Of a stretch of DNA of 64,000 bases, positions 22,568 to 52,306 are shown in pieces; within the stretch, counting starts at the first letter, position 1, and each line of letters starts with the position of its first letter. Position numbers and translations under genes: made by a program. Location of the stretch: assembly GCA_020848545.1 (NCBI GenBank), contig JADLHZ010000091.1:62001-126000 (forward strand). Direction: 5' to 3'. Source of the DNA: Deltaproteobacteria bacterium. GTDB lineage: Bacteria; Myxococcota; JADLHZ01. A model generated the notes under the pieces. The model did no database searches and was not told the origin of the DNA. It was given only the letters and a program-made list of their open reading frames with translations.

Positions 22568-23827
22568 TCAGCGTCGCTTCTTGCGCCGGCGCTTGGTCTT
22601 GTCGAGCACCGAGATGCCGCCGAAGAACTTGGCGATCTCCCTGAGGTACTCGCCGCGGTCTAGGTGCAAGAGATGGCTCCCGCAGTACCAGTGGATGCGA
22701 CAGCGATCCCAATGCTCCCAGAGCTCGCGAGAGTGCTTGGGCGGCGCCAGGCGATCAGCGACGCCGCCGATGATCATCAGGCGCTCCTTCGGGAGCAGCG
22801 GCGTGTACGAGAGCGGCGAGGTGAGCGCCAGCCATCGCCGGAGCGTCTGTACCGGCAGTCCCTTGATGCGCATGACCGCGCGGATGAGCTCGCTCACCGG
22901 GTGCCATTCGAGCGCGAGATCAGCCACGCTGACGAGCGGCACGTTCGGCACGCTGAAGGCGAGGCGCGGCTCGACGGCGGCGAGGAGCGCGCTCGTGTAA
23001 CCGCCGAGGCTGACGCCGGTGACCCCCACCGTCTCGACCCCGCGCACGATCATCAAGTGATCCATGAACACGCGAAAGTCGTGCACGGCCTGCAGGAACG
23101 CTTCGTTGATGCCGGCGATCCCGCCCGAGAAGAAGCCGTGGCCGGAGAACGGCGCGAGCGTGCTGCTCCGTTGGCCGTGAAAGGGCATCGTGAAGAGCAG
23201 CACGTCGCAACCGAGCTCGTAGAGCCACGGCAGCGCGAAGAACCATTCGTTCAGCGCGTAGAGATCGGCGGTGAAGCCGTGGATCGCGATGACGGTTGGG
23301 CGCGGGCCACCGCCGTGAAACCAATGCCGCGCGTGGGCCACCCGGTTCTTCGCGTTCGCGAGGTAGCCCTTGGCGTAAGCTGCGACGAGCGGCGTGTAGG
23401 CGCTGTCGAAGCGCAGATCTTCGCAGCTGCCGCCGGACGGAGCGAAGTGCGGCCAGCGCGCCTTCGTGCGGGTCACGCGGACCCCGTGCTCTGGCGCGCG
23501 GAAGGTCCGCGCGGGGTCTTCGTCGAGGAAGCGCGCGTAAGCTTCGCCCTCCGCCTCGAGATCGCGGATGCGCGCCGGCGAAAAGCCGAAGGGCAGGGCG
23601 GTGGCGCCGAGGAGCGTCGCCGCGGCGGTGCGCGTGACGAGGTCGCCAGCCGCCGTGAGCGCGACCTGCATGCGCTGCGAGAGCGGCAGCTCGAAGGAGA
23701 GCTCGCTCCGCCAGAAGCTCGGGTCGAGCTCATTCCACCATCGGCGCAGCTTGCGCGGCGCCTTCGTCGAGCCCGCGTGGCCGATGCGCGAGACAATCGA
23801 TTCGTGTGACCGCGTTCCTGCTGACAT
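22568..23827 (-). CDS. alpha/beta-hydrolase, ABHD18-like
   Basis: 419 residues from the Met at 23827 (a start 12 codons upstream is possible). Hydrolase landmarks are V-I-A-I-H-G-F-T-A-D, T-M-P-F-H-G-Q-R, the nucleophile elbow G-V-S-L-G-G, and a late D-R-L-A-P-P plus C-G-S-H-L-L-H segment providing acid and His. The long N-terminal region and the W-F-F-A-L-P-W-L-Y-E-L-G-C-D pattern fit the abhydrolase-18 group, whose substrates are unknown. The C-terminus is a run of Lys/Arg (T-K-R-R-R-K-K-R-R). No signal peptide. It is divergent from the histone-fold gene. Confidence 0.78.
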   Translation of the reverse strand: MSAGTRSHESIVSRIGHAGSTKAPRKLRRWWNELDPSFWRSELSFELPLSQRMQVALTAAGDLVTRTAAATLLGATALPFGFSPARIRDLEAEGEAYARFLDEDPARTFRAPEHGVRVTRTKARWPHFAPSGGSCEDLRFDSAYTPLVAAYAKGYLANAKNRVAHARHWFHGGGPRPTVIAIHGFTADLYALNEWFFALPWLYELGCDVLLFTMPFHGQRSSTLAPFSGHGFFSGGIAGINEAFLQAVHDFRVFMDHLMIVRGVETVGVTGVSLGGYTSALLAAVEPRLAFSVPNVPLVSVADLALEWHPVSELIRAVMRIKGLPVQTLRRWLALTSPLSYTPLLPKERLMIIGGVADRLAPPKHSRELWEHWDRCRIHWYCGSHLLHLDRGEYLREIAKFFGGISVLDKTKRRRKKRR

Positions 23828-23892
23828 CGTTTCGCATGATAGCGCACCGCGCGCGCCTGGCAAACCGCGCTCATTGATCGGCCGCGGCAGGC

Positions 23893-24399
23893 ATGGCAGG
23901 GACGCGGCGAGTGAGCAGCATCTTCCGCACCTGCAGCACGTGCAAAAAGCCGATCGCTTACGCGACGCGCTACTACGTCTGCAGCGTCTCGACCTGCCAG
24001 CGGACGGCGACGAACTTCGCGTTCTGCACCGTCGACTGTTGGGATGCGCATGTGCCTACGTTTCGTCACAAGGACGCGTGGGCCGAGGAAATGAAGAGTC
24101 CGAGCAGCCAAGCCGAAGCTGCGGCCCTCCCGATACAGGGCGCAGCAAACCGAAACATCGCCACGAAGAAGGAGCCCGTGATGAACGAAGAAGCAGCGAA
24201 GCCGAGCGAAGCGACGAGCGAAGACGTGTTGATTGTGGCCTCGAAGCTCAAGTCCTACATTCGCGCGAAGAGCGGCATGAACACCTCGGCATCGGTGATC
24301 GACGCGCTGAGCGGCAAGGTGCGCAAGCTCGCCGACGCCGCGATCGCCAAGGCGCAGAGCGAAGGGCGCAAGACTGTCATGGATAGAGACTTCGAGTAG
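23893..24399 (+). CDS. MYND-like zinc-finger fused to bacterial histone-fold domain
   Basis: 168 residues with two parts. Residues 10-60 hold six Cys and two His in a cross-brace-like spacing (C14-x2-C17, C30-x4-C35, C45-x3-C49, H53, H59), resembling MYND/HIT-type zinc fingers. Residues 109-167 read E-D-V-L-I-V-A-S-K-L-K-S-Y-I-R-A-K-S-G-M-N-T-S-A, a long middle helix, then S-E-G-R-K-T-V-M-D-R-D-F. This is the pattern of single histone-fold proteins described in Bdellovibrio (HBb type), with the R-K-T-V…D motif also seen in archaeal histones. The role should be DNA binding, possibly nucleoid organisation. A strong internal ribosome binding site and in-frame ATG at 24181 suggest a second, histone-only product. 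The histone assignment is by motif memory and needs a profile search. Confidence 0.72.
   Translation: MAGTRRVSSIFRTCSTCKKPIAYATRYYVCSVSTCQRTATNFAFCTVDCWDAHVPTFRHKDAWAEEMKSPSSQAEAAALPIQGAANRNIATKKEPVMNEEAAKPSEATSEDVLIVASKLKSYIRAKSGMNTSASVIDALSGKVRKLADAAIAKAQSEGRKTVMDRDFE
24166..24174 (+). promoter_or_regulatory. internal ribosome binding site for a histone-only product
   Basis: AAGAAGGAG at 24166-24174 lies 6 bases before an in-frame ATG at 24181. It is a better Shine-Dalgarno match than anything before the annotated start of the long gene at 23893. This is the expected layout for internal translation initiation. Confidence 0.55.
24181..24399 (+). CDS. probable stand-alone histone-fold protein (internal start, same frame)
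   Basis: Initiation at the ATG at 24181 gives a 72-residue protein, M-N-E-E-A-A-K-P… followed by the complete histone fold. This length matches the small single-domain bacterial histones, which are about 60-70 residues. It shares frame and stop with the 168-residue zinc-finger fusion, so both forms could be made from one mRNA. Alternatively the long frame is the only product, or the upstream zinc-finger stretch is a separate gene whose stop was lost. Confidence 0.5.
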   Translation: MNEEAAKPSEATSEDVLIVASKLKSYIRAKSGMNTSASVIDALSGKVRKLADAAIAKAQSEGRKTVMDRDFE

Positions 24400-24435
24400 C
24401 CCAAACGGGAGAGCGCAGGCGCGCAACGTCCATGG

Positions 24436-25152
24436 CTACGGAGCGGACTTGAACGCGCGCGTGCGTCGCTGCAGGCACTCGATCTTGCCGCCCTTGCCGA
24501 AGTTGCTGTCGAGCGTGCCCTTCTTGACGCGCTCGAGCTCGAGCGTCACATCGCAGGTCTTGTTCTGCTCGTCGGTCTGCGCGGTGATGAGGCTCTTCTG
24601 GATCTTGAAGCTGCCGAGGTCGCCGGTGTCGATCGTCCGCTCGACCGTGTTGATGCACGAGCCGGTGAGCTTGAAGCGCATCTGATCGCCGCTACCTGAC
24701 GGCGAATACGTGACGTCGATGTCTTGGGTCGCGCGCGAGAACTGCGTGGCCGCGTTCGGCGTCGAGAAGTCGAACGCCGCCGGCATGGTGCAGGCCGAGC
24801 GCGGCGCGCCGCGATCGATCGTGCGTTGAAAGCGCACGGCGAACTCGGTGGCGGCGGCGGTGATGCCTGAGTAGCGGGTGTCGTAGCTGATCGTGATGAA
24901 CGCCGAGCGCGAGAGCTCTTTTTCGGTCATGCCGGCGGCCGTCGCGAAGAGCTTGTCGTTGCCCTTCAAGTCCAAATACGTGAGCGAGTCGATGTCGCCT
25001 CGCTGCAAGTACACGGTGACGTCGGTTTGATCGGACTGCTCGGCGACGACGCGGATGTCGGCGCTGATGCCGCTCATGTGCACCTCGGTCGAATCGACCT
25101 TGCAGGCGGCGAACGTACATAGGCTTACGAGCAAAAAGAGGAATCGTTTCAT
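24436..25152 (-). CDS. uncharacterised lipoprotein
   Basis: 238 residues starting at the Met that gives M-K-R-F-L-F-L-L-V-S-L-C-T-F-A-A-C, a clean lipobox with Cys17. The mature part is Thr/Ser/Asp-rich and beta-prone, with about five further Cys (for example S-A-C-T-M-P, G-S-C-I-N-T, N-K-T-C-D-V-T). A disulfide-bonded periplasmic or outer-membrane-anchored domain is plausible. No family recognised. It converges with the histone gene. Confidence 0.75.
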   Translation of the reverse strand: MKRFLFLLVSLCTFAACKVDSTEVHMSGISADIRVVAEQSDQTDVTVYLQRGDIDSLTYLDLKGNDKLFATAAGMTEKELSRSAFITISYDTRYSGITAAATEFAVRFQRTIDRGAPRSACTMPAAFDFSTPNAATQFSRATQDIDVTYSPSGSGDQMRFKLTGSCINTVERTIDTGDLGSFKIQKSLITAQTDEQNKTCDVTLELERVKKGTLDSNFGKGGKIECLQRRTRAFKSAP

Positions 25153-52030: not shown

Positions 52031-52306
52031 TTACAGCGTTTCCTTCAACGTGCGCGCCGGCTTGAAGCCGACCGTCTTCGACGCCTTGATCTTCAAGGTC
52101 TCGCCCGTGCGCGGGTTGCGGCCGAGGCGCGGCTTGCGGTTACGGATCACGAACGTGCCGAAGCCCGGGTAGCTGAAGCGCTTGTGCTTCTTGATCGCGC
52201 CCGCGACGGTGTCGAACACGTTCTCGACGAGCTCGGTGACCGCGCGCTTGGTCATGCCTTCGCCCGCCTTCTTCGCCACTGCTTCGATCAGTTCTTGCTT
52301 CGTCAT
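52031..52306 (-). CDS. hup: HU-family DNA-binding protein
   Basis: 91 residues, normal HU length. M-T-K-Q-E-L-I-E-A-V-A, the core G-F-G-T-F, then R-N-R-K-P-R-L-G-R-N-P-R-T-G-E-T in the DNA-binding arms, and K-P-A-R-T-L-K-E at the end. It compacts and bends DNA non-specifically. The window thus contains both an HU gene and a histone-fold gene. A 270-base AT-containing promoter region separates it from the acyl-CoA synthetase gene. Confidence 0.95.
   Translation of the reverse strand: MTKQELIEAVAKKAGEGMTKRAVTELVENVFDTVAGAIKKHKRFSYPGFGTFVIRNRKPRLGRNPRTGETLKIKASKTVGFKPARTLKETL

What the first reader, a model, noticed from the sequence alone, without database searches (positions are those of the whole stretch)
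23893..24399. Zinc-finger/histone-fold fusion with an internal in-frame start for a stand-alone histone
The 168-residue frame couples six Cys and two His (MYND-like spacing C14-C17, C30-C35, C45-C49, H53, H59) to a C-terminal single histone fold with M-N-T-S-A and G-R-K-T-V-M-D-R-D. A strong ribosome binding site (24166-24174) precedes an in-frame ATG at 24181 that would give a 72-residue histone, the usual size of known bacterial histones. One locus could therefore supply two nucleoid proteins: a free histone, and a zinc-finger version able to recruit or modulate it. A bacterial histone carrying a zinc-binding domain would be new to me.
Basis: partly seen in the sequence, partly recalled or inferred. 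Interest (0 to 1): 0.78.

Follow-up and report, generated by a model that had tools for sequence, protein, structure and literature searches.

The report
Zinc-finger histone with nested histone start
The gene encodes a bacterial histone joined to a zinc-binding domain, a protein type already described as the 'ZZ histone', but it also carries a well-formed second start inside the gene that probably lets this one gene make a small free histone too, a job done by a separate, probably essential gene in related bacteria.

Summary
In detail: window 23893-24399 (+) encodes 168 aa with six Cys and two His, followed by one histone fold. AAGAAGGAG lies 6 nt before an in-frame ATG at 24181, which opens a 72-aa histone. 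The fusion is real: 132 genes keep both halves in one frame. As a protein it is not new: it matches the published 'ZZ histone' family (Schwab 2024), and its zinc domain resembles ZZ more than MYND. The two-product idea gains unexpected support. (1) In the window, codon choice leaves the mRNA unusually open exactly at 24181 (p=0.005; GC-rich controls show no consistent effect). (2) Thirteen other ZZ-histone genes have an ATG behind a ribosome-binding site near the same place. (3) In one Bdellovibrionota clade, relatives that lost the zinc half at the same locus, apparently twice, start their histone at the formerly internal ATG. (4) 13 of 14 genomes with this architecture, the window's included, have no other detected histone, against 36 of 118 without it. 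I read this as a ZZ histone gene doubling as the HBb-type histone gene, a new variant of a known kind. No translation data exist. In the window the ribosome-binding site alone is not significant (p=0.5), and no close relative was available.

The parts
23893..24399 (+). ZZ-histone gene, 168 aa (ATG 23893; GTG 23911 is an alternative start with a better ribosome-binding site)
23920..24126 (+). ZZ-type zinc domain, residues 10-78; ligands C14, C17, C45, C49 and C30, C35, H53, H59 (pairing into two sites taken from the published family)
   Evidence: alignments; model; fold search; paper
24130..24219 (+). Low-confidence linker, residues 80-109; lacks the RRI[IV]-like motif of standard ZZ histones
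24166..24174 (+). Internal ribosome-binding site AAGAAGGAG, 6 nt before ATG 24181
24181..24399 (+). Nested frame for a free 72-aa HBb-like histone, in the same frame as the fusion
   Evidence: homologous internal starts
24223..24396 (+). Histone fold with a shortened last helix (residues 111-168), including MNTSA and GRKTVMDRD
24146..24215 (+). mRNA stretch around ATG 24181 kept unstructured by synonymous codon choice (-7.9 kcal/mol; p=0.005)
   Evidence: controls

Best explanation
This is a ZZ histone gene that makes two proteins from one mRNA by two in-frame starts. Ribosomes starting at 23893 (or GTG 23911) make the zinc-finger histone. Ribosomes starting at 24181, behind AAGAAGGAG in an open stretch of mRNA, make a free 72-aa HBb-type histone. 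The free form would dimerise and bend DNA like HBb. The long form can form the same dimer, with itself or with the free form, and would display a zinc domain on it to bind a partner. In this genome the single gene stands in for the separate HBb-type gene of related bacteria. Shown: both domains, the start signal, its codon-level signature, its counterparts in relatives, the single detected histone gene, and absence of the zinc half with survival of the nested start in a related clade. Inferred: use of the start in the window organism, HBb-like DNA bending, mixed dimers, and partner binding.
For: Codon-preserving shuffles of the window give p=0.005 for the open mRNA at 24181 and p=0.002 jointly with the ribosome-binding site; along the gene the lowest p is at 24184-24199. 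Seventeen GC-rich standard ZZ histones show no consistent dip there. An ATG behind a ribosome-binding site sits 7-20 codons before the histone core in 13 further fusions; most of the histones from these starts begin like free ones (Met, short acidic tail). Syntenic relatives L102 and L085/L091/L092 lack the zinc half and start at the homologous ATG; L041 and L102 share the AAGGAGCTARATATGACAGACGG start region. The tree nests these free genes inside the fused ones twice (100/88 and 99/86). No other histone was found in 13 of 14 such genomes against 36 of 118 without the start (Fisher p=8e-6), nor in the window genome. In Bdellovibrio the free HBb (Bd0055) is probably essential and the longer histone Bd3044 cannot readily replace it (PMC10627809).
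Against: In the window the ribosome-binding site follows from Lys-Lys-Glu codons (p=0.5). No close relative of the window genome was found, so conservation of 24181 itself is untested. Twenty-eight fused ZZ histones from a Polyangiaceae-containing phylum have no internal ATG with a ribosome-binding site. Eight of the 14 cases are one clade, so the association has fewer independent events than its p value suggests, and the 14 were grouped with the start signal and the linker in view. Many single-histone genomes manage without an internal start, and L216 has the start plus other histones. The open-mRNA signal is not significant in every relative (for example L035, L170, L216). No expression data.
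Confidence: 0.68

Rival explanations
1. An ordinary ZZ histone with one product. The ATG at 24181 and the purine-rich stretch before it are by-products of a Lys/Glu/Ala-rich linker.
For: The ribosome-binding site is expected from the amino acids (p=0.5). Most ZZ histones have no internal start. Disordered linkers favour such codons.
Against: The open mRNA at 24181 is not explained by the amino acids (p=0.005) nor seen consistently in comparable ZZ histones. In a Bdellovibrionota clade the equivalent start is the only one left where the zinc half is absent.
Confidence: 0.2
2. The nested start is a relic. A free histone gene with its own start signals was fused behind a ZZ gene, and the signals are no longer used.
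For: Genomes with a stand-alone ZZ gene and a separate free histone exist, so the parts can be separate; the fused histone halves resemble free ones.
Against: In the Bdellovibrionota clade the fused state is the more parsimonious ancestor, the start region is kept over the clade while the linker before it varies, and it survives where the zinc half is missing. An unused start should not keep an open mRNA.
Confidence: 0.07
3. The free histone is made from a separate short transcript from a promoter inside the zinc-domain coding sequence, rather than by internal initiation on the long mRNA.
For: Not excluded; one locus would still give two products from the same start codon.
Against: No + strand sigma-70-type site was found in 23780-24480, but other promoter types are not covered.
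Confidence: 0.05

Closest known systems
ZZ histones (Schwab et al. 2024, PMC11390915; example D0LYE7 of Haliangium ochraceum)
   Same: N-terminal zinc domain with a C4 and a C2H2 site, C-terminal bacterial-dimer-like histone with a shortened last helix
   Different: An internal start for a free histone is not described there (no mention of alternative or internal start in the main text). The window protein lacks the RRI[IV]-like linker motif of most ZZ histones.
HBb / Bd0055, 'bacterial dimer' histone of Bdellovibrio bacteriovorus (PDB 8cmp, 8fvx, 9ezz)
   Same: The 72-aa nested product has the same predicted fold and the MNTSA and GRKTVM.RD motifs
   Different: HBb has its own gene; here the frame is nested in a ZZ histone gene
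Internal in-frame translation of Cas11 from a large Cas subunit gene (archaeal example PMC11899642)
   Same: Works alike: an internal start in a larger gene yields a small partner protein
   Different: CRISPR effector, unrelated in sequence; an analogy of mechanism only

Membership tests
ZZ histone | N-terminal zinc domain with C4 and C2H2 sites | tested here: met
   All eight ligands present and conserved at the published spacing, except C45-x3-C49 where the paper prints C51 and C53
ZZ histone | Zinc domain has the ZZ fold | tested here: inconclusive
   Best fold matches are p62 ZZ domains, but E is only 0.04; no Pfam model reaches its cut-off for the window protein
ZZ histone | C-terminal bacterial-dimer-like histone with shortened last helix | tested here: met
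   Helices 116-127 and 133-156 plus a three-residue last helix; HBb is the best fold and sequence match
Bacterial dimer histone (HBb type), for the nested 72 aa | RKTxxxD motif and absence of the face-to-face tetramer residues | tested here: met
   RKTVMDRD present; Lys and Glu align with HLp R49 and N53
Bacterial dimer histone (HBb type), for the nested 72 aa | Is made as a free small protein | tested here: inconclusive
   Start signals and comparative evidence only; no expression data
MYND or HIT zinc finger | Profile or fold match to MYND/HIT | tested here: not met
   MYND in only 6 of 77 members at best E 0.05; fold search ranks ZZ domains first
ZZ histone / HBb | Binds zinc, binds and bends DNA | not testable with these tools
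   Needs protein

The most novel reading that the evidence does not exclude
In this lineage and in parts of Bdellovibrionota, the HBb-type histone and the zinc-finger histone are two translation products of one gene, so their ratio is set at translation initiation. Genomes move between one nested gene and a free histone gene by losing or gaining the zinc half around a constant internal start.
Probability: 0.6. Interest if true: 0.7.

Novelty: new variant of a known kind. Interest (0 to 1): 0.6.

Why it matters
ZZ histones have no known function, and about half of the proteomes that have one lack a second histone (PMC11390915). A nested free histone would show how some of those single-histone genomes still make HBb-type protein. 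It would tie the two forms together (same gene, hence likely partners in mixed dimers), and would mean genome annotations miss histones hidden inside ZZ histone genes. It is directly testable with one mutated start codon.

Tried and rejected
The ribosome-binding site of the window as stand-alone evidence was rejected: codon-preserving shuffles reach it half the time. MYND/HIT assignment was rejected after Pfam and fold searches. The histone tree could not place the window sequence (58 columns, mostly unresolved), so whether its nested start is an independent origin is open. Candidate internal ATGs in L039, L046, L058 and L273 were set aside because they fall within or before a standard RRI-like linker motif. 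Viral contigs gave only two histone relatives matching the C-terminal part. Neighbouring genes (alpha/beta hydrolase, permease, FtsX/MacB-type proteins, M13 peptidase) give no functional hint.

Full report
WHAT IS THERE. Window 23893-24399 (+) is one open frame of 168 codons. The gene lies between genes on the other strand: an alpha/beta hydrolase upstream and a protein without a Pfam match downstream. It is present once in a genome of about 8.0 Mb. The upstream start is uncertain: ATG 23893 has almost no ribosome-binding site (-1.7 kcal/mol), GTG 23911 a moderate one (-6.0).

THE FUSION IS REAL. One scan of genome contigs returned 44 loci covering nearly the whole protein at about 40-50% identity. 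After further genome searches, 132 genes with both domains in one open frame were collected, the window's included. Across the alignments seven of the eight ligands are invariant and the eighth (C45) is over 90% conserved. AlphaFold gives a confident zinc domain (about residues 10-78), a low-confidence linker (about 80-110) and a confident histone fold with a very short last helix (mean pLDDT 84.7). The histone half matches Bdellovibrio HBb by sequence (E 1.5e-10) and fold (TM 0.91).

IT IS A KNOWN PROTEIN TYPE. Schwab et al. 2024 (PMC11390915) describe 'ZZ histones': an N-terminal zinc domain with a C4 and a C2H2 site and a C-terminal bacterial-dimer-like histone, with Haliangium D0LYE7 as example. 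The window protein meets this by ligand pattern, order of domains and histone type. Their ligand list fits ours with an offset of 6 residues, except that they print C53 where our alignment expects C55. The zinc domain reaches no Pfam cut-off in the window protein. Its best fold matches are ZZ domains of p62 (E 0.04), ahead of MYND-containing proteins.

THE INTERNAL START, EVIDENCE IN THE WINDOW. The ribosome-binding site alone says little: codon-preserving shuffles reach it about half the time, although only 2% of 248 internal ATGs in the window's larger genes have one as strong. The mRNA structure says more. The 70 nt around 24181 fold with only -7.9 kcal/mol in a 66% GC window, where internal ATGs average -23.2 (sd 5.1) and none of 248 is as open. 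With the protein held constant, shuffled codons are as open in 0.5% of cases, and as open with as good a ribosome-binding site in 0.2%. Sliding along the gene, the lowest p falls at 24184-24199, just at and after the ATG. The codons after the ATG are unusual in the way typical of gene starts (GAA at the Glu codons up to 24210, against 32% in the window's genes). Seventeen GC-rich standard ZZ histones tested at the same place show no consistent effect. The tested position was fixed in advance by the finding.

THE INTERNAL START, EVIDENCE FROM RELATIVES. Thirteen other fused genes have an ATG 7-20 codons before the histone core behind a ribosome-binding site and lack the usual RRI[IV]-like linker motif and the Pro before the core found in many standard ZZ histones (one of the 14 matches a strict form of the motif). 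Most of their histone halves begin like free histones: Met, a short acidic tail, then the core. Eight of them form one Bdellovibrionota clade. Four relatives of that clade (L102, L085, L091, L092) have no detected ZZ domain anywhere and carry a free histone at the same locus, between the same neighbours. These free genes start at the ATG homologous to the internal one. L041 (fused) and L102 (free) share the leader before the gene and the AAGGAGCTARATATGACAGACGGAAATACAG start region, with the zinc half missing in L102. In the histone tree L102 is sister to L041 (100/88) and L085/L091/L092 to L033 (99/86), inside the fused group. The simplest reading is two losses of the zinc half, each leaving a histone gene that starts at what used to be the internal ATG. 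That start must then have been usable.

HISTONE GENE COUNTS. A histone profile found no other histone in 13 of the 14 genomes with the internal-start architecture, including the window genome, against 36 of 118 with standard ZZ histones (Fisher p=8e-6; within Bdellovibrionota 12 of 13 against 22 of 98). Clade structure and incomplete genomes weaken the p value. In B. bacteriovorus the free histone Bd0055 is probably essential, and the longer, less abundant Bd3044 cannot readily compensate (PMC10627809). That Bd3044 is the ZZ histone is my inference. A genome with only the fused gene therefore plausibly needs the nested product. The window genome does have five HU/IHF-type genes, so the histone is not its only DNA-bending protein.

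HOW IT PROBABLY WORKS. One gene, two starts: the long zinc-finger histone, probably at a lower level (poor upstream start), and the short histone from an open, well-spaced start. Both share the dimerisation surface, so mixed dimers that carry one zinc domain are likely. The domain's partner is unknown; Schwab et al. consider binding to histone tails unlikely. Levels, mixed dimers and partner are inference. The closest mechanistic analogue is Cas11 made by internal in-frame translation (PMC11899642).

LIMITS. The window genome is isolated in the searched set (relatives only at phylum level), so the start at 24181 could not be tested for conservation. Fused ZZ histones of the Polyangiaceae-containing phylum lack the start, so in this lineage it is either a separate origin or a transfer; the tree cannot tell. 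No expression evidence exists for any of these genes here.

Noticed in passing
L002 1372-2181; L004 1459-2193: Two genomes carry a ZZ domain followed by two histone folds in one frame (269 and 244 codons), a ZZ-histone doublet not mentioned in the passages read of the ZZ histone paper.
   Followed up: partly
L149-L162 (genomes of the window's phylum): Stand-alone ZZ proteins of about 70-90 aa occur in genomes where the histone profile finds no histone or only a distant one, so the ZZ domain probably has a role without this histone.
   Followed up: partly
L165, L166, L168, L169, L172-L177, L179, L192, L195, L197, L198: Stand-alone ZZ proteins, most with a tail ending in an ILRR-like motif, in genomes whose single detected histone is free and encoded elsewhere.
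   Followed up: partly
linkers of standard ZZ histones, e.g. L054, L060, L213: A short RRI[IV]-like motif recurs in the linker of about 80% of standard ZZ histones (95 of 118) and is absent in nearly all internal-start ones; possibly a binding motif.
   Followed up: partly
L031 2153-2155: An in-frame TAA interrupts the histone fold of the fusion that is the top contig hit to the window protein; sequencing error or decay not resolved.
   Followed up: no
L041 and L102 upstream of the histone locus; similar in L085, L091, L092: A conserved GGGCCTGA...TCAGGCCC-like hairpin followed by a T run precedes the histone gene, either the terminator of the upstream gene or a leader element.
   Followed up: no
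window 52034-52306 (-): An HU/IHF-type DNA-binding protein gene lies in the same window; the genome has five such genes.
   Followed up: partly
L335, L336: Two viral contigs (IMG/VR) encode histone-fold relatives of the C-terminal half (49% and 36% identity).
   Followed up: no
PMC11390915, Fig. 4 legend: The paper lists the C4 ligands of D0LYE7 as C20, C23, C51, C53; the alignment here has C-x3-C, which would make the last one C55. Not checked against D0LYE7 itself.
   Followed up: no
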